A stretch of 64,000 nucleotides of DNA from Sphingomonas quercus (GTDB lineage: Bacteria; Pseudomonadota; Alphaproteobacteria; Sphingomonadales; Sphingomonadaceae): positions 124,001 through 188,000 of the forward strand of contig NZ_JAHKRT010000007.1 in assembly GCF_018863195.1 (NCBI RefSeq), in the 5' to 3' direction. Shown here piece after piece: positions 27,170-37,021 of the stretch. The translations under genes and the position numbers were made by a program. Under the pieces are notes generated by a model. The model saw nothing but the letters and a program-made list of their open reading frames with translations. It did no database searches and had not been told where the DNA came from. Each line of letters starts with the position of its first letter. Position 1 is the first letter of the stretch.

Positions 27170-28104
27170 AGCCGCCTCCGCGCCGTCACCGGCTGCATGT
27201 AGGCGGGCGCCAGCCGGGCGACAACGTCATCGAGCGGCTCCGCGACAGTCGCCATCCAGAAGGCGTTGGCGTGGAGCAGTGTCGCCTCGTCGGCCATGAT
27301 GCCGACATGGCCGGGGAAGAAGATCAGGTCGCCCCGCCGCAGCGCCTCGCCCTCGGCAATCTCCTCGCCGAGCGCGGCCTGTTGGTCGCTGTCCCGCGGG
27401 GCGGCGATGCCGGCAGCGGCGAGAGCCGTCTGCACGAGGCCGGAACAGTCCAGCCCGTCGCCGCTGCGCCCGCCCCAGCGATAGGGTGCGCCGATCAGCC
27501 GTTCGGCGACGCCGGTGTAATCGGCCTCATCGTCATCGAGCGCCCGAACGTGGCGCATGTGGACGAAGCCCTCCGCCGTATCGAGAAAGGCATCGCCCGA
27601 CGTGCCGGCCAGCAGCACGCCCATCGGCAGGCGGGCGACGATCGGCGCCTTGATGTCGGGTGCGGAGAACAGGTAGCCGGCCGGCGCGCTCACGCGGTGC
27701 GTCGCCGCCAGCGGTGTGCCAAGCGCATCAAGCGCGACATAGCCGACATAATGATCGTGCAGGCTGTAGCCCCAGGCCCAGCCACCCGCCACGTCGACCA
27801 CCGCAAAGCCCTCGCCGCGCAGCAGCTCGGAGACGGCGCGGGCCTCCAGCGACGGTTCGGCGCGGATCGGCGCCGACACTGCCGCGCAGCCATGCTCCAG
27901 CGGCAGCGCATAATGCGGCGCGAACACGCGATCGGCGAGCGCGACGTCGGCGATGTCCCCCCGGGCTGCGTGAATTCGTGGGTCGATCCGCCGGGACGGA
28001 CCGGTCAGCCGGATCCGCTCAACCGTGAGCGAGGCCGGCGAACTGTTGGCCCGGTGGGGGGCTTCGGCCCGTATCGCCGCCGATGAGGCCACTGAAACCT
28101 TCAA
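27166..28104 (-). CDS. NlpC/P60 family cell-wall peptidase
   Basis: A cysteine peptidase of about 312 aa, probably a gamma-D-glutamyl-diamino-acid hydrolase acting on wall peptides. Bacterial SH3-like regions (about 65-190) precede the NlpC/P60 domain with the catalytic Cys220 in GLDCSGLVQ, His266 in PGHVGIM and His278 in LLHANAF. No clear signal peptide is visible. The start is uncertain: TTG 28104, preceded by AGGGGCGG, lies inside the 3' end of the marR gene. An in-frame GTG lies at 28092. The region before residue 40 looks poorly conserved. Confidence 0.85.
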
Positions 28105-28390
28105 GAAAATCCGCCCCTGACTGCGTGCGCGTGATGAAGATATTGCGACGATCCTTTTCGTCGCGTTCGCGGCGCAGATAGCCCAGCGCGGAGAGGGTGT
28201 TCAAGGCTCGCGTCACCACGGGCTTGGAGACGCCCAGCATGCCGGCGAGGCCGCGAACCGTATGCGGCCCGTTAGTGCGATAGACGATCAGCAGCAGCGC
28301 CATCTGCCGATTCGTCAGGTCCGGCCTTCCGGAGCGGACATAGCCGATCAGGGTCTTCATCCACTTCCAGAGTGCGTCATTCTCCGCCAT
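28019..28390 (-). CDS. MarR-like winged-helix regulator
   Basis: A 123-aa transcription factor. Its helices and wing match the MarR family: TNRQMALLLIVYRTNGPHTVRGLAGML leads into the recognition helix VSKPVVTRALNTLSALGYLRRE and the wing RRNIFITRTQSG. The C-terminus is low-complexity (GRSPPPGQQ) and overlaps the next gene by 86 bases. I chose ATG 28390 over an in-frame ATG 30 bases upstream because family alignments begin near it. It lies 145 bases downstream of the gasdermin-associated protease on the same strand; whether it regulates that operon is unknown. Confidence 0.78.
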   Translation of the reverse strand: MAENDALWKWMKTLIGYVRSGRPDLTNRQMALLLIVYRTNGPHTVRGLAGMLGVSKPVVTRALNTLSALGYLRRERDEKDRRNIFITRTQSGADFLEGFSGLIGGDTGRSPPPGQQFAGLAHG

Positions 28391-28535
28391 CACATTTCCC
28401 TCAGCCCCGGGGATACGCAACCTTGCGCTAGGGTTAACAAACTCGTGAATGACACAATCGTTTCCTGCGCGTTCTTATTTTTTCCCGAAACCGGACAGTT
28501 TGCCCTCGATCAGCGCTGAATCGTTACGGGGCCGA

Positions 28536-29702
28536 TCAAGCGAAGCATTTGATGAGGTCGGGGAGCGAGGCGCGGATCGCGGCGAAGCCGTGACCATAAT
28601 TCTCCTCCCGGCTGATGCCGCCGAAATGGATGCCGATGATGCGCCCGCCGTCGGCATCAAGATCGACCAGTGCCGAGCCGGAATTGCCGCCGAGCGTCGA
28701 TGCGTCATGGGAGAGGACCCATTTGCGCCGGTCGCCGGGCAGGGCGCCGGGCATGTCCTCGATGCGGCCGGGCGCCAGCTTCTTGACGCCGAAATCGCCG
28801 TGGAAGACGGAGCTGATCACCGCGCTGGTCTCGAAGCCGGGCGGCGGCACGGCGTCGCCGACCTGCACCAGCGGCCGCGCCGGAAAGCCGATGGCGCAAA
28901 AGGCGCCGCTTTCCGCCAGCCGGTCCGGCCCGGCGTCGAGCGACACGGCGTCGGGAAGCCGGGCGCCGCCGATCCCGGTGCAGCGCAGGACGGCCACGTC
29001 GAGATGGCCGAAATCGACCATGCCTGCGATCGGATCGGGCCCGGCGAAGGGGATGTCGGTGACCCGGGCGGATGGCCTGGCGGGGGCGCCGTCCTCGGCG
29101 AGGAAATCCAGCGTGGTCGCGTCGGGCCAGCGCAGCGTCCAGGTGCCGCGCGGCCCTTCCACGGCGATCGCCTCGGCGACATGGCGATTTGTGATGACGA
29201 GATCGTCGGCGACGACGAAGCCGGTGCCGGCGAAGAACGGCTTTACCGGCACGTTGATCCGCGCCACCGAGCGGATCACCTTCTCGATCGCCGGCCGGAA
29301 CAGCGACAGGGCCGTGCGCCATTCGCCGACCTCCGCGGCGGCGAGATCGATATAGCCGTCGCGGATGGTGAGGCTCGGCCGCGTGCCGTCGGTCAGCACC
29401 ACCGCCTCAAGCGCGACCGCCTCGCGGATGGTGAAGTCGTCGCGGCCGTCGTCGAGCTTGGGCAAGGCCGTCTGCGCACCGGCGACGAGCGCCGCGGCCA
29501 GCTCCGGGTCGGCATTGCGCGCGTCGAGCCCGGCGCGGAGCATCTCCACGCGATCCTCCCGCGGCAGCCCCGGCGCCGCGGCGAGCCCCCGGGAGGGCGC
29601 CGCCGCCTCCAGGCCGAGGCCGGCGCTCCCCCTGGGCTGCCCTGTTCGCGCGAGGCGCGCCGTGCTTCGCGGCACGCGCACCGTTCCATCCATCCAGTGC
29701 AT
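28536..29702 (-). CDS. Trypsin-fold (V8-like) serine protease associated with the gasdermin
   Basis: A 388-aa protein without signal peptide, so cytoplasmic. Residues 1 to about 150 form a domain I cannot assign, with a helical part and TRPSLTIRDGYIDL. The protease domain follows. Its triad is His174 (VITNRHVAEA), Asp235 (GHLDVAVLRC) and Ser341 (STLGGNSGSAL), and it ends with IIGIHFGG. The Thr five residues before the serine and the His of GIH are those that give glutamyl endopeptidases (S1B, V8) a taste for acidic P1 residues. The gene follows the gasdermin gene at once. ATG 29702 has GAGGGG at seven bases; a GTG at 29717, overlapping the gasdermin stop as GTGA, is the alternative. Bacterial gasdermins are activated by such neighbouring proteases. 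Confidence 0.88.
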   Translation of the reverse strand: MHWMDGTVRVPRSTARLARTGQPRGSAGLGLEAAAPSRGLAAAPGLPREDRVEMLRAGLDARNADPELAAALVAGAQTALPKLDDGRDDFTIREAVALEAVVLTDGTRPSLTIRDGYIDLAAAEVGEWRTALSLFRPAIEKVIRSVARINVPVKPFFAGTGFVVADDLVITNRHVAEAIAVEGPRGTWTLRWPDATTLDFLAEDGAPARPSARVTDIPFAGPDPIAGMVDFGHLDVAVLRCTGIGGARLPDAVSLDAGPDRLAESGAFCAIGFPARPLVQVGDAVPPPGFETSAVISSVFHGDFGVKKLAPGRIEDMPGALPGDRRKWVLSHDASTLGGNSGSALVDLDADGGRIIGIHFGGISREENYGHGFAAIRASLPDLIKCFA

Positions 29703-29713
29703 CGGCTTGCCCC

Positions 29714-30520
29714 TCACAGATCGGTTGCGATCAGGCCGCCCTGGTCGAGATAGACATAGCCCTGGGGCCCTTCGCCCAGCGCTGCCTCCAGCGCGATGCT
29801 GCCGGCATCGGCGAGCTTCATCGTGCGATAGCGGCCGTCGTCGAAGATCAGGCGCACCGCCTGAAAGCCGAACACCAGTGGAACCTGTCCCTCGTAAGTG
29901 ACCACGGAACTGCTCGCGCCGCTGCCCGAGACCTTCAGGCTGCCGCCCACCGCGCCCTGGATCACCGGCACGTCGAGGCCGATCGAGTTCTTGTGGTCGT
30001 CCTTGGCGGCGACGTTGATCTTGCTGGATTTCAGGGTCGAGGTGATGACGAACACATCGTCCGAATCCAGCATGTCGCTAATCGCGTGCGCAAAGGGATT
30101 GATGGTCGCGCCTGCAAAAAACTGGTCGAGAAGCGCCGGCTCGGCATTGCTTTCCAGCACCCCGGCGAACTCGAACTGCACGGACCGCGCCTGGGTATAG
30201 CCCGCGTTCAGTGCGAGCGTGGAGCCGCCGAGCGCCGAGATCAGCCCGCCAAGGATGTTGAGCCCGATGCCGATGTCGATATCGGCCGATTTCGTGCCGG
30301 ACACGTTCGGCGCCGGATTGTCGGCGGAAATGGCCGGGACCGGCGCCGCCGGTGCCGGTGTGAACACGGACGTGAGCGAGCCGATGCGCTGCAGCTTGCT
30401 GCCCTTGCGCGCCAGCAGCAGCGTCGGCGTCAGGTCCGCCTTGGGCAACCGGACGACATTATAGCCCATCGCCTTGAGGGCGGTGAGGGCAGGATCCTTG
30501 CAGTTCGGTATCAATCCCAT
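29714..30520 (-). CDS. Bacterial gasdermin (pore-forming cell-death effector)
   Basis: A 268-aa protein matching the bacterial gasdermin family in length and pattern. Cys7, the only cysteine, sits where bacterial gasdermins carry a palmitoylated cysteine. It is followed by DPALTALKAMGYNVVRLPKA, then LLLARKGSKLQRIGSLTSVF, a proline-rich loop (54-72), and alternating hydrophobic beta-hairpin segments (GLNILGGLISALGG, VQFEFAGVL, DVFVITSTLK, PLVFGFQAVRLIFDDG). The last roughly 20-30 residues would be the autoinhibitory tail. Cleavage of the tail by the adjacent protease would let the protein assemble large membrane pores and kill the cell, typically in anti-phage defence. The start has AGGAGA at six bases. 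The family call is from recognition; no search was run. Confidence 0.85.
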   Translation of the reverse strand: MGLIPNCKDPALTALKAMGYNVVRLPKADLTPTLLLARKGSKLQRIGSLTSVFTPAPAAPVPAISADNPAPNVSGTKSADIDIGIGLNILGGLISALGGSTLALNAGYTQARSVQFEFAGVLESNAEPALLDQFFAGATINPFAHAISDMLDSDDVFVITSTLKSSKINVAAKDDHKNSIGLDVPVIQGAVGGSLKVSGSGASSSVVTYEGQVPLVFGFQAVRLIFDDGRYRTMKLADAGSIALEAALGEGPQGYVYLDQGGLIATDL

Positions 30521-30577
30521 GTCCGTCTCCTGGAATAGGCCGGCCGGAAAGCCGGCGGCGAGAAAGTTGAGGGGGCG

Positions 30578-32110
30578 TCAGCGCGATGCCGGCATCGGTC
30601 GGAACGGCAGCACGCGCCCCGGCGCCGCCTCCAGCGCGCCGCCGGCGAACAGATGATCCCGCACCGCCGGGAAGACGATGTCGGTGCGGGCGATGACGAA
30701 GGCGGCATGGCCTATGGCGCCGCCCGGTCCCTCCGCGCGCAGATCGAGCCGGATGGCGCCGTCGTCGCGCAGCTCGGCGGTGCCGATCGGCGCTGCCGGG
30801 TCGGGCTCGGCGACGGCGAGCGGCGATTCGAGCACCGGCCCGGCGGCAAGCGGCGCCGCCTCCCAATAGCCGAACAGATTGGGCCAGTCGCCGTGCAGCG
30901 CTGCGGACTCGACGCAGAAGCGCGCGCCGCTCTCGGCGAAGGTCTCCTCCAGTCCGGCATCGCCCGGCTGCGATTCATAGACGCCGAGCCGGGCCAGATC
31001 GCCGTCGCGGGCCGTCTGGAAGCCGGCGGCGCGGATCACCTGATGTCGGCCGCTATAGTCATGGCCGTGCAGCGATTCATGCACGACCAGCGACGCCGAA
31101 CCATGTTTGCCCGACGCCGCGGTGGGCACCACCCGCTCGCCCGCCGGCCCGGCGATGGTCGCGATCACCACCCGCTTGCGGTCGTCCAGATAGGTGCCGG
31201 GCACGTCGTCCCAGGTGCGCCCGGTATTCTCCCAGCCGCGCGGCACGACGCCGCGCAGCCCGGTCTCGAAATCGGTGACCGCTTCGCGGCAGGCGATGAT
31301 GCGGATGCCCAGGTCCTCGAACCGCGCCATCACCGCATCGGGAAGGGACGCCGCCTCGCGGGCGACCGCTTCCAGATCCTCGCCGGTGCCGCTGCCGCCG
31401 GTGACGACCAGCAGCCGGGCGCGGGCGATGCGCTCCGCCGGGGCGTCGAGCGCGCCCTCCACGGCCGCCCGCACCGTGTCGCGGGCATCGGCCAGCGCCT
31501 CGATCTCGGCGAGGTTGAGGCCGTGGCCGACGATCGCCTCGCTGTCGGCGACCAGCGTCGCGGCATCCGCATCGCCCGGCTGGCGCATTGCCTCCAGCGC
31601 GCCTTCCAGCGCCACGCCCGGCGCGTTCCAGCGCGGGCCGAAGCGGTAGACGGCGTAGAACATGATCTTCGCCTGTACCGCCGACACGCCGCTGCACCGC
31701 ATGGCATCGTGGAACATGCGGTGCGTATCCCGCCACGGGCGCGATCTGGCGTCGCAATAATGATCGTGGACGATCGAGGCGTTGAGATACCGGCCCTCGA
31801 ACGGCCCGCCGATCAGCGACCAGAAGACGCGCGGGATCGAGGCCCCGTCGAGGGCCGAGCCGAGCGGCACCGGCCAGGCGCTGCCGTCGGGCCGCGTGTA
31901 GGAAATGGGCGCGAGCAGCGTTGCGTTGCGCCCCTCGTCGGAGAACTCGACCCTGGACGGCAGCCCGTCATAATGGCCGAAGCCGGGCGCTGGAGCGGCG
32001 CCCTCCAGCCCGATCGCGGGCGTGGCCTGCGTGAACAGGTCGCCGATCGCCTGGATGGCGGCGGCGAGATCGGAACAGGTACGCACCGGAGACAGGGATG
32101 TGATCGGCAT
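30578..32110 (-). CDS. DUF1353-like / HExxH metallopeptidase protein, first gene of the gasdermin operon
   Basis: A 510-aa protein without signal peptide. Residues about 65-165 resemble DUF1353 (DGASIPRVFWSLIGGPF, then IVHDHYC and MFYAVYRFGPRW). Residues about 235-400 look like a zinc peptidase: the HExxH motif is His344-Glu345-Ser-Leu-His348 in VVHESLHGHDY, and 40 residues later comes Glu389-Thr-Phe-Ala-Glu393. HExxH followed by ExFAE is the pattern of lethal-factor-like gluzincins. The C-terminal part (about 430-510) looks like a beta-rich domain. AGAGGA precedes the ATG by seven bases. It is 57 bases upstream of the gasdermin on the same strand. A role as phage sensor, second activating protease or accessory toxin is inference. 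Confidence 0.7.
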   Translation of the reverse strand: MPITSLSPVRTCSDLAAAIQAIGDLFTQATPAIGLEGAAPAPGFGHYDGLPSRVEFSDEGRNATLLAPISYTRPDGSAWPVPLGSALDGASIPRVFWSLIGGPFEGRYLNASIVHDHYCDARSRPWRDTHRMFHDAMRCSGVSAVQAKIMFYAVYRFGPRWNAPGVALEGALEAMRQPGDADAATLVADSEAIVGHGLNLAEIEALADARDTVRAAVEGALDAPAERIARARLLVVTGGSGTGEDLEAVAREAASLPDAVMARFEDLGIRIIACREAVTDFETGLRGVVPRGWENTGRTWDDVPGTYLDDRKRVVIATIAGPAGERVVPTAASGKHGSASLVVHESLHGHDYSGRHQVIRAAGFQTARDGDLARLGVYESQPGDAGLEETFAESGARFCVESAALHGDWPNLFGYWEAAPLAAGPVLESPLAVAEPDPAAPIGTAELRDDGAIRLDLRAEGPGGAIGHAAFVIARTDIVFPAVRDHLFAGGALEAAPGRVLPFRPMPASR

Positions 32111-32144
32111 AGTCGATCCTCTTTCCCCGGAGCATCGCTATTGC

Positions 32145-32159
32145 CCGGATGCTATCCGG
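32145..32159. promoter_or_regulatory. Inverted repeat upstream of the gasdermin operon
   Basis: A perfect CCGGAT-GCT-ATCCGG palindrome lies in the 85-base gap between the hydrolase-OsmC stop and the first gene of the gasdermin operon, 35 bases before its ATG. No T-run follows on either strand, so an operator is as likely as a terminator. Confidence 0.3.
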
Positions 32160-32195
32160 TTTCGCGGTCGCCGCAAAGCCGTCATTTGCGCGATC

Positions 32196-33458
32196 TCAGC
32201 CGCCCGGGTGTTCCATCATCCGTGCCATTTCCTCGGCGTGCGCCTCGATGCGCTCGGCCTGGGCAGGCGGGTCGCCGAGGCGGGTCATCACCCGCGATCC
32301 CTTCTCGAGCGTGCGGTGGACCGGGCAGCGATCGGCGATCTCCAGAAGCCGCGCGCGCTGCGCTGCGTCGAGCGCGCCGTCGACGGCGATGCGGCGGGTG
32401 AACAGGTCGGCAGGCTCCACGCCCGCCTCGCGGACATGCCCGACCGCGGTCTGGATGCGGTTGACCGGCCAGCCCTTGCCGTCGGCATAGAGCCGCAGTG
32501 TCATCGTCGTGCAGGCGCCGAGCGCGGCCGACAGCAGGTCATAGGGCGTCGGCCCCGATCCCATCCCGCCGACGCTGACCGGTTCGTCGGCCAGGAAACG
32601 CAGACCGCCGGCGCGGATCGCGACCTGGTAACGTCCCTCGCGCGTTTCCTCGGCGACGACGTCCTGCGCGTCGAAGCCTTCGCGGGTTTGCTCCAGCGGC
32701 GGCAGATAGCGGCTTGCCCACGCCGCGATCAGGCCGGCGGCGTAGCGCGCATCCTCGGCGCCCGACAGGAGGTGATCGGCATTGTCCAGAGAAATGAAGC
32801 TCTTGGGATGGCGCGCTGCCATGAAGATGCGGGTGGCGTTGTCGATGCCGACCACGTCATCCTGCGGAGCGTGGAGGATGAGCAGCGGCCGGTGCAGCGC
32901 GGCGATGCGAGCGCCCTGATCGTGGCTGCGCAAATCGTCCAGAAACTGTCGCCCTACGGCAAAGGTGCGGCCTGCCAGCGGCACCTTCGCCATGCCGTCG
33001 CGTGCGATCGCCTCGAGGCTGTCCGGCGCGAAATGATGGAGGACGTGGGCGACATCAAACGGCGCGGCGATCGTCGCCACCGCCTTGATCTGCTCCAACT
33101 GACCCGCAGCGGCGAGTACGGCGGCGCCGCCAAAACTGTGCCCGATCAACAGGCTGGGCGTCATTCCTGATGCGGTCATCGAAGTGACGGCGGCGACGAG
33201 GTCGGCGACATTGGTGGCGAAGCTGGTTTCGGCGAACTCGCCCTCGCTGTCCCCGAGTCCGGCGAAATCAAAGCGCAGCACGCCGATGCCCTGCGCCGCC
33301 AGAGCGCGGGCGATGCGCACCGCGGCGATATTGTCCTTCCCGCAGGTGAGGCAGTGGGCGAACACCGCCCAGGCGCGCGGCAGCCCTTCCGGCATCTCGA
33401 CACGGCCGGACAATGGCATGAGGGTGCTGCCGGTGAATTCCAGGCTGCGGGTTGGCAT
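32196..33458 (-). CDS. Bifunctional alpha/beta-hydrolase / OsmC fusion protein
   Basis: A 420-aa two-domain protein. Residues 1 to about 255 form an alpha/beta hydrolase with the nucleophile elbow GHSFGG and a late Asp-His pair (HAPQDDVVG, NADHLLSG). The rest is an OsmC-type domain with GPTPYDLLSAALGACTTMTL, containing the redox cysteine, and the second cysteine in RCPVHRTLEK. OsmC domains reduce organic hydroperoxides with a cysteine pair; the hydrolase may release acyl or peroxy-ester groups. It leads a minus-strand set with another OsmC and a pirin gene. Confidence 0.9.
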   Translation of the reverse strand: MPTRSLEFTGSTLMPLSGRVEMPEGLPRAWAVFAHCLTCGKDNIAAVRIARALAAQGIGVLRFDFAGLGDSEGEFAETSFATNVADLVAAVTSMTASGMTPSLLIGHSFGGAAVLAAAGQLEQIKAVATIAAPFDVAHVLHHFAPDSLEAIARDGMAKVPLAGRTFAVGRQFLDDLRSHDQGARIAALHRPLLILHAPQDDVVGIDNATRIFMAARHPKSFISLDNADHLLSGAEDARYAAGLIAAWASRYLPPLEQTREGFDAQDVVAEETREGRYQVAIRAGGLRFLADEPVSVGGMGSGPTPYDLLSAALGACTTMTLRLYADGKGWPVNRIQTAVGHVREAGVEPADLFTRRIAVDGALDAAQRARLLEIADRCPVHRTLEKGSRVMTRLGDPPAQAERIEAHAEEMARMMEHPGG

Positions 33459-33483
33459 TGCCGGTCTCTCCTCGGAAATCGTC

Positions 33484-33870
33484 TCAGGCGAGCTGGGTGT
33501 GGATGGGAAGGCCGGACTTGAGCGTCAGGGTCACCGGCGTGCGCTCCGCGATATCGGCGAGGCGGGCGCGCTGCTCCTCGCTGAGTGCGCCGGCGGGGCG
33601 TAGCGTCCGCTCGATACGCATGTCCTCGCCGGCGCGGACGATGCGCAGGCTCACATCCAGCGACTCCAGCGGCCATTCCTTGCGATCGGCATACATGCGC
33701 AGCGTGATCGCGGTGCAGGCGCCGAGCGCGGAGAGCAGCAAGTCATAGGGAGCCGGCCCGGCATCGCCGCCGCCGACACGCTGCGGTTCGTCGGCGGTGA
33801 TCGGATGGCCCGATACCTCGATGGTCGTGCGATAGCGGTCGCGCCCGATATGGGCGGTGGCGTGGGTCAT
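33484..33870 (-). CDS. OsmC family protein
   Basis: A stand-alone OsmC-domain protein of 128 aa, closely similar in layout to the C-terminal half of the fusion encoded next. [20 protein letters not shown] holds the first conserved cysteine. At the position of the second cysteine this protein reads ERTPVTLTL, so the RCPVH-type cysteine is missing and classic two-cysteine peroxidase activity is doubtful. ATG 33870 was chosen because OsmC homology begins right after it. It overlaps no neighbour and lies 13 bases after the pirin stop. Confidence 0.85.
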
Positions 33871-33883
33871 GGCGAGGCTCCTT

Positions 33884-34804
33884 TCAGGGATAGCGGACCG
33901 GCCGGGGATCGTCGGGAAGGGGAATGAACTCGCTCTCCTCCGGCACCGGCGCAAAGCGTTGCCCGCGCCAATCCTCCTTCGCCTGTTCGATCCGATCGGC
34001 AGAAGATGACACGAAGTTCCAGTAAATATGCCTTTTTTCCGGGAAAGGCTCGCCGCCTGCAAGCATCAGCCGGGTCGGACCCTTGGCGCGGACGACGATC
34101 TCGGCGCCGGGTTTGAACACGACCAGCTCATGTTCGGTGAAGCTGCCGGCCTGGCCCTCCACCTCGATCGCGCCGGACACCACATAAATGGCCCGCTCCA
34201 CATGCTCGGCCCTGAGCTGGTAACGTGCCCCGTCGACGAGCAGGATCTCGGCATAGACCATGTCCGAGAAGGTCTTCACCGGCGAGACCAGCCCGTCGGA
34301 GCGGCCCGCGACGAGGGTCAGGGTAACCCCGTCCGCGTCCAGCTTCGGAATTTCGCTTTCCTTGTAGTGCGAGAAACTTGGGTCAGATTCCTCATAAGCC
34401 GTAGGAAGCGCGACCCAGGTCTGCAGTCCGTGCAGCGGGCCGCCCGCAGCGCGCAGCTCCGGCCCGGTGCGCTCGGAATGGACGATGCCGGAGCCTGCGG
34501 TCATCCAGTTCACTTCACCCGGGCGGATCGACTGGACCGAGCCCACCGAATCCCGGTGCATGATCTCGCCTTCGATAAGATAGGTGACGGTGGCGAGCCC
34601 GATATGCGGGTGCGGGCGGACGTCCAGTCCATCGCCGCTGTTGAAGGCGGACGGGCCCATATGGTCGAAGAAGATGAACGGCCCGACCATGCGGCGATGC
34701 GCGGATGGCAGCGCGCGCCGCACGCTGAACCCGTCGCCGAGGTCGCGCACCGGCGGCAGGATGACGAGGTCGACGCCGTCGACGTCGCTGGAGCGGAGGG
34801 TCAT
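33884..34804 (-). CDS. Pirin family protein
   Basis: A bicupin of 306 aa. The iron-binding residues of pirins are visible: the His pair in [15 protein letters not shown] and the His/Glu in [10 protein letters not shown]. The C-terminal cupin carries [11 protein letters not shown] and ends with [16 protein letters not shown], typical of pirin_C. Pirins can act as quercetin dioxygenases or as redox-sensing partners of regulators. Start ATG 34804 follows AGGAG (minus strand) at about seven bases. Confidence 0.9.
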
Positions 34805-34854
34805 GCTGGCAACTCCTGGGTCGGGTCGCGCCACTGTCGCAGGGTGGGGCGAGA

Positions 34855-34900
34855 AAGAAAAGTTGGTGCCGCCGGGCGGAGGGGAGAGGCCCGGCGGCAC
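34855..34900 (-). terminator. Rho-independent terminator after the second pirin gene
   Basis: An 11-bp perfect stem (34866-34876 with 34890-34900) is followed on the minus strand by CAACTTTTCTTTC. It lies 65 bases after the 34965-35663 stop, so the two pirin genes are probably separate transcription units. Confidence 0.75.
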
Positions 34901-34964
34901 ACTGGACCGGCAGATCGCGGAGAGGGGGGCCACGCGATCGATGTTGCCGGTCCGAGGCAGTGGT

Positions 34965-35663
34965 TCAGGCGGCGTCGACCAGCACGATCTCGCTATCTTC
35001 GAGCGCGGTCACCGTGATCGTGTCGACCTCGCTGATCGCGGCGCCATCGCGGGCGTTGATCCGCTGGCCGTCAATCTCGATGGCGCCGGTGGCCGGCACC
35101 AGGTAGCCGCGCCGATCCCGGCCGAGCGGATACTCCGCCGTCTCGCCGGCCTTCAGCGTCGCGCCGACCACCCGCGCATCGGTGCGGATCGGCAGCGCGT
35201 CATCGTCGTTGGCGAAGCCCGAAGCGAGCACGACGAACTGGCCGGCGCGATCGCCCTTGGGGAAAGGCTTGGCGCCCCAGCTGGGCTTTTCGCCGGTGCG
35301 CGTCGGCAGGATCCAGATCTGGAAGATCCGGGTCGTCACGTCCTCCATATTATACTCCGCATGGGCGATGCCGGTGCCGGCCGACATCACCTGCACGTCG
35401 CCGGCTTCTGTACGGCCCTTGTTGCCGAGATTGTCCTGATGGGTGATCGCGCCCTCGCGGACATAGGTGATGATCTCCATGTCGCGATGCGGATGCGGCG
35501 GAAAGCCCGACTGCGGCGCGATCGTGTCGTCGTTCCAGACGCGCAGATTGCCCCAGTTGGTGCGGGCGGGATCGTGATAATTGGCGAAGGAGAAATGATG
35601 CTTGGCATCGAGCCAGCCGTGGTTCGCGCCGCCAAGGGAGGCGAAGGGACGAAGTTCGATCAT
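34965..35663 (-). CDS. Pirin family protein, YhhW (quercetin dioxygenase-like) type
   Basis: A 232-aa bicupin of the short YhhW type. The N-terminal cupin has the metal ligands in PPHPHRDMEIITYV and GTGIAHAEYN. E. coli YhhW, of the same length, shows quercetinase activity in vitro; the physiological substrate is unknown. The gene follows the small unknown gene by 33 bases, and both are divergent from the LysR gene at 36092. Confidence 0.9.
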   Translation of the reverse strand: MIELRPFASLGGANHGWLDAKHHFSFANYHDPARTNWGNLRVWNDDTIAPQSGFPPHPHRDMEIITYVREGAITHQDNLGNKGRTEAGDVQVMSAGTGIAHAEYNMEDVTTRIFQIWILPTRTGEKPSWGAKPFPKGDRAGQFVVLASGFANDDDALPIRTDARVVGATLKAGETAEYPLGRDRRGYLVPATGAIEIDGQRINARDGAAISEVDTITVTALEDSEIVLVDAA

Positions 35664-35696
35664 GTCGCGGTTCCTTTCGGTGAGGTCGGAGGAAGG

Positions 35697-35996
35697 TCAG
35701 GCGGCGAGCAGCGCGATCGCGCGCACCTGCGCCGGATTGTAGCCCTGGTCGATCAGCGCCGGGACGAGGCTCTCCGCCGGCTTGCGGCTGCGGCGCGTGT
35801 CACAGACGAACAGGCGCAGTGCCTCCAGCCGGGGATCGGCCAGCGGCTTCGGCCGCTCGATGCCGGTCAGCGCGGCGAAGATGCGCCCGAGCCGGCCCGG
35901 CTCGCCGCTGGCGCAGCCGCAATTGGCGGCGTCGTTGATGGCGACGGTAACGGCCTTCCACTCGGTCTGGCTCAGCGCGGGAATGTCCTGGTTCAT
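35697..35996 (-). CDS. Unknown 99-aa protein divergent from a LysR regulator
   Basis: I do not recognise this family. The protein is soluble, with a compact cysteine cluster NCGCASGEPGR near residue 26 and another Cys in LRLFVCDTRR, and a C-terminal helical hairpin ESLVPALIDQGYNPAQVRAIALL. The CGC cluster could be a redox or metal site, which is inference. It is the first gene transcribed from the divergent promoter shared with the LysR gene, followed by the YhhW pirin, so it probably belongs to the same redox response. Confidence 0.65.
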   Translation of the reverse strand: MNQDIPALSQTEWKAVTVAINDAANCGCASGEPGRLGRIFAALTGIERPKPLADPRLEALRLFVCDTRRSRKPAESLVPALIDQGYNPAQVRAIALLAA

Positions 35997-36091
35997 CTCG
36001 ACCCTCCTTCGATCTGTCCCGTCCCAGATAGTCGCGCTGGACTTGCGTGCTCAGCCGGATAAATTCTGGGTGAACGTTCGAGGAAGTTGAA

Positions 36092-37021
36092 ATGTCGAGC
36101 CCGGGAACGCCTACTTTCGATCAGCTCCGCGTGTTCCTGACGGTGGTCGAGACGGGCAGCTTCGCCGCCGCGGCGCGCAAGCTCAACCGGGCAGTGTCGG
36201 TGATCAGCTACGGCATCGGCAATCTCGAGGCGCAGCTCGGCCTTGCCCTGTTCGATCGGGAGGGCACGCGCCGGCCGAAGCTCACCGTCGCCGGCCATGC
36301 CGTGCTCGCGGAGGCGCGGGCGGTGTCGCAGGGAATTGACGGCCTGCGCGCCAAGGTGAAGGGCCTGCTTGACGGGCTGGAGGCGGAGGTCAATCTCGCC
36401 GTCGACGTGATGCTGCCGTCGGAGCGGCTCGGCCGCGTGCTGCGCGCTTTCAACGCGGCTTTCCCGACCGTGTCGCTGCGCCTCCATGTCGAGGCGCTCG
36501 GCGCGGTGACGGGGCTGGTGCTGGACAGGCAGGCGGTGATCGGGATCAGCGGCCCGCTCGCTTCCGAGATGGACGGCATCGCCTGCCAGACGATCGGGTC
36601 CGTGCTGATGGTGCCGGTGGCGGCGCCCGATCATCCGCTGGCCCGCACCAATCCGCTGCCGCCGGGAGCGGGGCGAGATCATATCCAGATCGTCCTCACC
36701 GACCGCTCGCCCCTGACCCAGGGACGCGACTTTTCGGTGATGAGCCCGCGCACCTGGCGGCTGGCCGATCTCGGCGCCAAGCACGCCCTGCTGCGCGAGG
36801 GCATTGGCTGGGGCAACATGCCGCTGCCGATGATCGAGAGCGACCTGGTGGCGGGCACGCTGGTCCGCCTGGCGATGCCGGATCATCCCGGCGGCAATTA
36901 TCGGCTGTCGAACATCTGGCGGCGCGATACCCCGCCGGGGCCGGCCGCCTCCTGGCTCCTGCAGCAATTCGCCGATTGCCTGCGCGAGGACGGTGCGGCA
37001 GCGATGATGGCCGATGTCTGA
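36092..37021 (+). CDS. LysR family transcriptional regulator
   Basis: A 309-aa LysR-type regulator. The N-terminal winged helix reads FDQLRVFLTVVETGSFAAAARKLNRAVSVISYGI, and the effector-binding domain covers about residues 95-300. LysR proteins usually regulate the divergent gene from the shared intergenic region, here 95 bases (35997-36091), so the 99-aa/pirin unit is the likely target. Binding to the further OsmC genes is possible. The recognition helix is unusual in carrying AVSVISYGI where most members have QPAVSRQI. Confidence 0.9.
   Translation: MSSPGTPTFDQLRVFLTVVETGSFAAAARKLNRAVSVISYGIGNLEAQLGLALFDREGTRRPKLTVAGHAVLAEARAVSQGIDGLRAKVKGLLDGLEAEVNLAVDVMLPSERLGRVLRAFNAAFPTVSLRLHVEALGAVTGLVLDRQAVIGISGPLASEMDGIACQTIGSVLMVPVAAPDHPLARTNPLPPGAGRDHIQIVLTDRSPLTQGRDFSVMSPRTWRLADLGAKHALLREGIGWGNMPLPMIESDLVAGTLVRLAMPDHPGGNYRLSNIWRRDTPPGPAASWLLQQFADCLREDGAAAMMADV

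What the first reader, a model, noticed from the sequence alone, without database searches (positions are those of the whole stretch)
28536..32110. Three-gene bacterial gasdermin operon: metallopeptidase-like protein, gasdermin, V8-like protease
Directly seen: three minus-strand genes with gaps of 57 and about 11 bases (or a GTGA overlap). The middle protein matches the bacterial gasdermin pattern: 268 aa, N-terminal Cys7 followed by DPALTALKAMGYNVVRLPKA, beta-hairpin-rich body, short tail. The third gene is a trypsin-fold protease without signal peptide and with an intact triad. Known for the family: bacterial gasdermins are lipid-modified, autoinhibited by a short C-terminal peptide, and activated by proteases encoded next to them, giving membrane pores and cell death during phage infection. 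Inference: this is such a defence unit, with an additional unusual upstream partner.
Basis: partly seen in the sequence, partly recalled or inferred. Interest (0 to 1): 0.92.

Follow-up and report, generated by a model that had tools for sequence, protein, structure and literature searches.

The report
Gasdermin suicide operon with lipase-like partner
A bacterium carries a compact three-gene cell-suicide cassette built around a gasdermin, the pore-forming protein of animal inflammatory cell death, together with a protease and an unusual protein that joins a lipase-family domain to a second protease; it looks like a new version of a known kind of defence against viruses.

Summary
Three minus-strand genes lie 57 bases and about 11 bases (or a GTGA overlap) apart. 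The middle protein is a bacterial gasdermin: PADLOC bGSDM 271.6 bits, NCBIfam 234.3 bits (cut-off 100), solved structure 7n51 at E 2.2e-49. The third is a trypsin/V8-fold protease with an intact triad.

The first gene is more than metallopeptidase-like. It joins a DUF1353 domain to a Pro-Pro-endopeptidase-like zinc protease domain with HExxH. One DUF1353 protein is a proven phospholipase A2 (PMC11525133, passages). Here, though, the position of its dyad aspartate holds histidine, as in 9 of 13 aligned sequences.

The closest gasdermin found elsewhere (61% identity, Sphingomonas MAG) lies in an operon whose last gene fuses a related trypsin, a NucA-type endonuclease and a DUF1353. I read the window cassette as a slimmed-down relative of NucA-trypsin / CARD-NLR gasdermin systems.

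Likely mechanism: the trypsin-like protease removes the gasdermin tail and pores open; the DUF1353-metalloprotease is a second effector or the trigger. Pore formation, phage defence and phospholipase activity are untested. New variant of a known kind.

The parts
30578..32110 (-). Gene 1 (P0001, 510 aa): DUF1353 domain fused to a Pro-Pro-endopeptidase-like (MEROPS M34-type) zinc protease domain
   Evidence: ORF; DUF1353 80.9 bits and ATLF 24.5 bits, the latter below its 27.4 cut-off; PPEP-type solved chain 6fpc 45.6 bits
31649..31921 (-). DUF1353 domain (residues 64-154); H115-D116 conserved, His130 at the place of the phospholipase dyad Asp
   Evidence: domain limits; conserved residues
30821..31417 (-). 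Pro-Pro-endopeptidase-like domain (about residues 232-430; the 3' limit is approximate)
   Evidence: match 232-353; homologue L025 aligned through the third zinc ligand
31067..31081 (-). HESLH zinc-binding motif (residues 344-348); Glu389 is the likely third ligand
   Evidence: motif; Glu389 inferred from the alignments
30581..30808 (-). C-terminal stretch of gene 1 (about residues 435-510), shared with the stand-alone metalloprotease of L025
   Evidence: Alignment
29714..30520 (-). Gene 2 (P0002, 268 aa): bacterial gasdermin
30500..30502 (-). Codon of Cys7, the only cysteine, predicted lipidation site
   Evidence: aligned with the N-terminal Cys of 7n51 and 7n52 and of L012, L013, L014
29717..29818 (-). 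C-terminal stretch of the gasdermin (about residues 235-268), candidate autoinhibitory tail; ends in an LDxGGL motif shared with 7n51
   Evidence: Alignment; autoinhibition by this tail is known for the family (PMC10989679, passages), not tested here
28536..29717 (-). Gene 3 (P0003, 393 aa from GTG; ATG at 29702 more likely): trypsin/V8-fold protease with an N-terminal extension of about 150 residues
   Evidence: Trypsin_2 49.6 bits; PADLOC PDLC03010 'nacht' 137 bits over residues 76-387
28629..29228 (-). Trypsin_2 domain (residues 164-363) with triad H179, D240, S346
   Evidence: limits; triad invariant in 6 of 6

Best explanation
A compact bacterial gasdermin cell-death operon. The gasdermin is held inactive by its short C-terminal tail and is anchored by a lipid on Cys7 (known for the family, inferred here). 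The co-encoded trypsin-fold protease cuts off the tail, the gasdermin assembles pores, and the infected or damaged cell dies. The first gene, a DUF1353 domain fused to a Pro-Pro-endopeptidase-like zinc protease, belongs to the same pathway, either as a second membrane-attacking effector (DUF1353 is a phospholipase-A2-type family) or as the upstream protease that switches on the trypsin. Shown here: family memberships, intact protease motifs, gene order, and that a gasdermin, a trypsin of this family and a DUF1353 meet again in the operon of the closest gasdermin found. Inferred: cleavage, pores, phage defence, and the role of gene 1.
For: Gasdermin by three independent comparisons, with the N-terminal Cys and C-terminal LDxGGL shared with 7n51. 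Protease triad invariant. In L012 a 61%-identical gasdermin is followed by an EAD5-trypsin, a protein with a similar N-terminus, an nSTAND1-like protein and a trypsin-Endonuclease_NS-DUF1353 fusion. The window's DUF1353 core is most like that of this fusion family (68% to L024), and the similarity runs past the domain to residue 208. Gasdermin (1 of 396 order genomes over cut-off), gene-1 relatives (8 of 396) and gene-3 relatives (7 of 396) are each rare, own genome included, so their meeting twice is unlikely to be chance. The gene-1 protease domain has a homologue beside a CHAT protease gene in L025. Another gasdermin found, L013, has a subtilase next to it.
Against: No activity was tested. 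The exact three-gene trio was seen only in the window. The L012 and L024 fusions are close to each other (70% identity), so they are one independent witness. The window trypsin is not closest to the L012 one (33% against 36% for lone trypsins of G080 and G202). In plasmids, DUF1353 relatives (34 records) and gene-3 relatives (32 records) share no record, so the pairing is not general. No sensor or NTPase gene was recognised among the flanking genes checked, so the trigger is unknown. Gasdermin relative L014 has no evident protease beside it on its 9.2-kb contig, and its gene holds an in-frame stop. In L031 the neighbour matches CHAT only below cut-off.
Confidence: 0.72

Rival explanations
1. 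Gene 1 is the switch, not an effector: its Pro-Pro-endopeptidase-like domain cuts the trypsin-fold protease, which then cuts the gasdermin (a two-step cascade), and DUF1353 is a binding or sensing domain.
For: The only Pro-Pro site in the three proteins is PPP at residues 291-293 of gene 3, inside an 11-residue insertion absent from the 5 other sequences aligned. The DUF1353 dyad Asp is His here. Proteolytic cascades are proposed for NucA-trypsin systems (PMC7159879, section 32 read).
Against: The number of Pro-Pro pairs is what shuffling gives (gene 3: 2 observed, 2.21 expected). Known Pro-Pro endopeptidases are secreted and need flanking residues (recalled), and no specificity was tested.
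Confidence: 0.25
2. Genes 2 and 3 are a two-gene gasdermin-protease pair, and gene 1 is an unrelated neighbour that shares the transcript.
For: 57-base gap against about 11 bases or an overlap for genes 2 and 3. The trio as such was seen once. Lone DUF1353 genes exist (L026-L030).
Against: A DUF1353 of the same group lies four genes after the closest gasdermin, fused to a trypsin of the gene-3 family. Gene 1 and the gasdermin are each absent from the other 9 genus genomes searched, as one lineage-specific block would give.
Confidence: 0.2
3. A decayed or domesticated remnant: the sensing genes and the nuclease were lost and the cassette no longer works as a defence system.
For: The STAND-like, EAD5 and nuclease parts of L012 are missing from the cassette; no Endonuclease_NS in the own genome (0 of 1; the control search rang in 4 of 14 genomes). 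It lies at a lineage-specific break of gene order.
Against: Three full-length open frames; both protease active sites and the gasdermin Cys are intact. Base composition is like the surroundings.
Confidence: 0.12

Closest known systems
Bacterial gasdermin (bGSDM) systems, Johnson et al. 2022 (paper not held; known here through PMC10989679 passages)
   Same: Gasdermin with N-terminal Cys, short C-terminal tail and no large C-terminal domain, encoded with a protease; sequence match to solved chains 7n51, 8sl0, 7n52, 7n50
   Different: Third gene is a DUF1353 + Pro-Pro-endopeptidase-like fusion; I found no report of this partner
CARD-NLR gasdermin systems, Wein et al. 2025 (not held; seen through PMC13236601 passages)
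   Same: Trypsin-like protease thought to activate a gasdermin; in other variants phospholipases or endonucleases take the gasdermin's place
   Different: No NLR-like gene in the cassette; a gasdermin and a phospholipase-family domain occur together
NucA-trypsin conflict systems, Kaur et al. 2020 (PMC7159879, section 32 and passages)
   Same: Gene 3 is of the trypsin family that in L012 and L024 is fused to Endonuclease_NS; a proteolytic cascade is proposed there
   Different: No NucA endonuclease in the cassette or the own genome. DUF1353 and gasdermin are not mentioned in that paper's main text
DUF1353 phospholipase A2 (TtaP, PMC11525133, passages)
   Same: DUF1353 domain with the His-Asp pair (H115-D116)
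   Different: Dyad Asp replaced by His130; fused to a zinc protease. The TtaP sequence was not fetched; positions are mapped by spacing and through other DUF1353 proteins
Pro-Pro endopeptidases (PPEP-2 6fpc, Zmp1/PPEP-1)
   Same: 45.6 bits to 6fpc, with the GVVPRGWExTGxTWDDVPG stretch and HExxH
   Different: No signal peptide seen (by eye); fused behind DUF1353

Membership tests
Bacterial gasdermin | Profile match over the whole pore-forming domain | tested here: met
   271.6 bits, residues 7-260; 234.3 bits, cut-off 100
Bacterial gasdermin | N-terminal cysteine at the lipidation position | tested here: met
   Cys7 aligned with the Cys of 7n51 and 7n52; lipidation itself not testable
Bacterial gasdermin | Short C-terminal inhibitory tail instead of a large domain | tested here: met
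   268 aa; tail aligned to 7n51 through LDxGGL; inhibition not testable here
Bacterial gasdermin | Protease encoded next to it | tested here: met
   Gene 3, Trypsin_2 49.6 bits, intact triad
Bacterial gasdermin | Gasdermin fold in a predicted model | not tested
   The two prediction jobs went to genes 1 and 3; fold inferred from 41% identity to 7n51
Bacterial gasdermin | Pore formation and cell death after cleavage | not testable with these tools
   Needs expression
CARD-NLR gasdermin system | NLR-like/STAND ATPase gene in the operon | tested here: not met
   No such domain in the three genes or in five flanking genes scanned; the rest of the genome was not searched for NLR genes
CARD-NLR gasdermin system | CARD-like N-terminal domain on the protease | tested here: inconclusive
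   The gene-3 model failed (mean pLDDT 31.1); no Pfam domain in residues 1-163
NucA-trypsin system | Trypsin-like peptidase of this family | tested here: met
   33.8% identity over 299 columns to the trypsin of the L012 fusion
NucA-trypsin system | NucA/Endonuclease_NS domain | tested here: not met
   None in the own genome
DUF1353 phospholipase A2 | DUF1353 domain over cut-off | tested here: met
   80.9 bits, cut-off 22.5
DUF1353 phospholipase A2 | Catalytic His with adjacent Asp | tested here: met
   H115-D116, invariant in 13 of 13
DUF1353 phospholipase A2 | Second dyad residue Asp | tested here: not met
   His130 in the window; His in 9 of 13 and Asp in 4 of 13
DUF1353 phospholipase A2 | Fold match to group XIV phospholipase A2 structures | tested here: inconclusive
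   No PDB match at E 0.001 or better for the gene-1 model, none by profile; 7 viral-library matches at that level, the best named DUF1353
Pro-Pro endopeptidase (M34-type) | Sequence match to the family | tested here: met
   6fpc E 3.9e-11; but the Pfam ATLF score of 24.5 is below its cut-off of 27.4
Pro-Pro endopeptidase (M34-type) | HExxH plus downstream Glu ligand | tested here: met
   HESLH 344-348; Glu389 by alignment
Pro-Pro endopeptidase (M34-type) | Cleavage between two prolines | not testable with these tools
   Needs an assay

The most novel reading that the evidence does not exclude
A three-tier bacterial death cascade in three genes: a DUF1353 domain, of a kind also found in phage tail regions, serves as bait or sensor for an incoming phage; it releases the Pro-Pro-endopeptidase-like domain fused to it, which cuts the trypsin-fold protease at its unique PPP insertion; that protease frees the gasdermin pore. 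A milder form of the same reading is a double membrane attack, pore plus phospholipase, from one operon.
Probability: 0.15. Interest if true: 0.82.

Novelty: new variant of a known kind. Interest (0 to 1): 0.62.

Why it matters
Known gasdermin systems pair the pore with a protease, often with a large sensing ATPase. Here three genes suffice on paper, without any recognisable sensor, which makes the trigger question directly testable in a small construct. The window and the L012 operon together suggest that DUF1353, a family whose one tested member (of those described in PMC11525133) is a phospholipase A2, is a recurrent partner in protease-driven death systems. If so, a gasdermin and a lipid-attacking domain work side by side in one operon, whereas reports on related systems describe one replacing the other (PMC13236601, passages).

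Tried and rejected
Single-protein scan of 84,980 genomes with the gasdermin: no relative. Scans of viral contigs with gasdermin alignments: none; with gene 1 alone: none; with gene 3 relatives: none; with a DUF1353 alignment: 7 loci. Gasdermin in 72,556 plasmid records: none. Structure prediction of gene 3 failed (mean pLDDT 31.1). In gene 1 only about residues 41-160 came out usable (blocks of 69-93), mean 50.0. PDB fold search of that model found nothing significant, so the phospholipase link rests on the paper, not on my own fold match. A Pro-Pro-endopeptidase-domain search in 362 class genomes gave two weak matches besides the own genome; looking at them showed no metalloprotease gene, and I dropped them. 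Promoter and terminator scans gave no minus-strand site. Chance meeting of the families was considered and rejected because each is rare. Anthrax-lethal-factor-type naming of gene 1 (Pfam ATLF) was set aside: the score is below cut-off and the closest solved relatives are Pro-Pro endopeptidases. In one search one flank query (a pirin-type gene) was cut out of frame, so its absence there says nothing.
Full report
1. The observation. The three genes are there, on the minus strand, at 30578-32110, 29714-30520 and 28536-29717. The first gap is 57 bases. The third gene starts either at a GTG that overlaps the gasdermin stop or, more likely by eye, at the ATG at 29702 after GAGGGG, which leaves an 11-base gap. 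The promoter and terminator scan found no site on the minus strand here, which neither helps nor hurts.

2. The gasdermin. The 268-aa protein matches PADLOC bGSDM at 271.6 bits, NCBIfam NF051890 at 234.3 bits against a cut-off of 100 and solved chain 7n51 at E 2.2e-49; Pfam has no match. Identity to the 7n51 stretch is 41%. Cys7 is the only cysteine; it aligns with the N-terminal Cys of 7n51 and 7n52 and of L012, L013 and L014, but not of the distant L031. The tail ends in an LDxGGL motif that 7n51 shares. In the family, this tail holds the protein inactive and a protease removes it (PMC10989679, passages). No structure was predicted for the gasdermin.

3. The protease. Gene 3 has Trypsin_2 (49.6 bits) and triad H179/D240/S346, invariant in 6 of 6 aligned sequences. 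Its best PADLOC match is PDLC03010, named 'nacht', 137 bits over residues 76-387; that this model was built from gasdermin-associated proteases is my guess from its number lying near that of bGSDM. Solved relatives are weak V8-type matches. About 150 residues precede the protease domain; their fold is unknown because the model failed (mean pLDDT 31.1).

4. The upstream gene. It carries DUF1353 (80.9 bits, cut-off 22.5) and, behind it, a domain closest to Pro-Pro endopeptidases (6fpc, 45.6 bits, E 3.9e-11; 16 of the 19 listed sequences are Pro-Pro endopeptidases or Zmp1), with HESLH at 344-348 and Glu389 as likely third ligand. The Pfam ATLF match to the same region is below its cut-off (24.5 against 27.4). 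DUF1353 of Salmonella TtaP was shown to be a phospholipase A2 with a His/Asp dyad, and its authors expect the same of other DUF1353 proteins (PMC11525133, passages). In the window His115-Asp116 are kept, invariant in 13 of 13 aligned sequences, but the dyad Asp position holds His130. It is His in 9 of 13 and Asp in 4 of 13, and His in all 7 viral-contig relatives. Phospholipase activity is therefore open. The model of gene 1 is usable for about residues 41-160 only; it matches phage DUF1353 proteins in the viral library (7 at E 0.001 or better) and nothing significant in the PDB. A profile of the 13 sequences found no PDB sequence either.

5. Linkage. The decisive find is L012, from a Sphingomonas MAG. 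Its gasdermin is 61% identical; behind it come an EAD5-trypsin, a protein whose N-terminus resembles that of the EAD5-trypsin, a protein with a marginal nSTAND1 match (27.7 bits, cut-off 27.1), and a 940-aa fusion of Trypsin_2, Endonuclease_NS and DUF1353. Both the gene-3 trypsin and the gene-1 DUF1353 are related to parts of that fusion (33.8% over 299 columns and 49.8% over 207 columns). L024, from a genome of the window's family, has the same four genes at 51.6-70.6% identity and no gasdermin in the 18.9-kb stretch, so there the gasdermin is optional. In a tree of DUF1353 cores, the window groups with L012, L024 and the long-branched L008 (support 83/98, not starred by the program); its highest identity is 68%, to L024. 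Against a general rule: in plasmids the 34 records with gene-1 relatives and the 32 with gene-3 relatives share none (compared by accession). The window trypsin is slightly closer to lone trypsins (36%, L038 and L039) than to that of L012 (33%).

6. More of the pattern. I opened 6 of the 34 plasmid hits of gene 1 with wide flanks. One is unannotated; in the other five, all near the top of the list, a peptidase gene lies within 5 kb: a subtilase next to DUF1353 in L009 and L011 and next to an 'M12 metallopeptidase' gene that holds the match in L008, and a caspase-family gene about 4-5 kb away in L006 and L010. Three more, opened with narrow flanks, showed one aspartic-protease gene. L025 has a homologue of the gene-1 protease domain, as a separate 271-aa gene, beside a gene with CHAT and DUF7379. 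The Pedobacter gasdermin L013 is followed by a subtilase and an alpha/beta-hydrolase-like gene. In L031 the neighbour is CHAT-like only below cut-off. L014 has an in-frame stop and no evident protease neighbour.

7. Distribution. The gasdermin family reaches its cut-off in 1 of 396 genomes of the order and 1 of 398 of the phylum, the own genome in both; one weaker match each besides. In the genus, gene 1 and the gasdermin are each found in 1 of 10 genomes, the own. In 8 of 8 relatives whose stretch was fetched, the neighbouring MarR, NlpC/P60 and semialdehyde-dehydrogenase genes are together, and none of the three cassette genes is there. Beyond MarR the gene order of the relatives differs from the window (6 relatives looked at), so the cassette sits at a lineage-specific break. 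Base composition gives no sign of a foreign island.

8. Mechanism. Best supported: gene 3 cuts the gasdermin tail, pores form, the cell dies. Gene 1 is a partner of the same pathway, as a second effector or as a switch. The PPP at 291-293 of gene 3 is the only Pro-Pro site in the three proteins and lies in an insertion that the other 5 aligned sequences lack, which suits a cascade. But the count of Pro-Pro pairs is what shuffling gives, so this stays a lead. Nothing in the cassette or in the five flanking genes scanned looks like a sensor.

9. Place among known systems. The gasdermin itself is an ordinary family member. The cassette works like a gasdermin defence system, but it does not meet the tested features of CARD-NLR systems (no NLR-like gene nearby) or of NucA-trypsin systems (no Endonuclease_NS in the genome, where the control search rang in 4 of 14 genomes). 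DUF1353 appears in 4 papers of the library, and the two full-text terms gasdermin and Pro-Pro endopeptidase never together. The two founding gasdermin papers are not held, so I cannot exclude that this locus is in their tables.

Noticed in passing
L012:14959-17781 and L024:7534-10305: Fusions of Trypsin_2, Endonuclease_NS and DUF1353 in one protein; L024 has the operon without a gasdermin.
   Followed up: partly
L025:5221-10294: Stand-alone Pro-Pro-endopeptidase-like gene next to a 1159-aa CHAT + DUF7379 protein and a 252-aa protein of unknown kind; the metalloprotease shares a C-terminal stretch of about 70 residues with gene 1 of the window.
   Followed up: partly
L008:5996-7564, L009, L011: DUF1353 in rhizobial and Sphingopyxis plasmids next to subtilase genes, in one case within a gene annotated as M12 metallopeptidase.
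   Followed up: no
DUF1353 family: The dyad Asp of the phospholipase is His throughout one large group of DUF1353 proteins, viral-contig copies included (9 of 13, 7 of 7), which suggests a changed chemistry rather than decay.
   Followed up: partly
L013:10004-17866: Pedobacter gasdermin followed by a subtilase, an alpha/beta-hydrolase-like gene, a weak TIR match and a ParA-like ATPase + glycosyl hydrolase 25 gene.
   Followed up: no
L014:2848-3645: Gasdermin gene with an in-frame stop in a Sedimenticola MAG; assembly error or broken gene.
   Followed up: no
window 28019-37021: Gene order breaks after MarR: relatives do not carry the cassette or the following OsmC genes there.
   Followed up: partly
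phage records: DUF1353 relatives in 46 phage records, several annotated as tail assembly chaperone; gene 1 also matches PHROG 1158, category tail.
   Followed up: no
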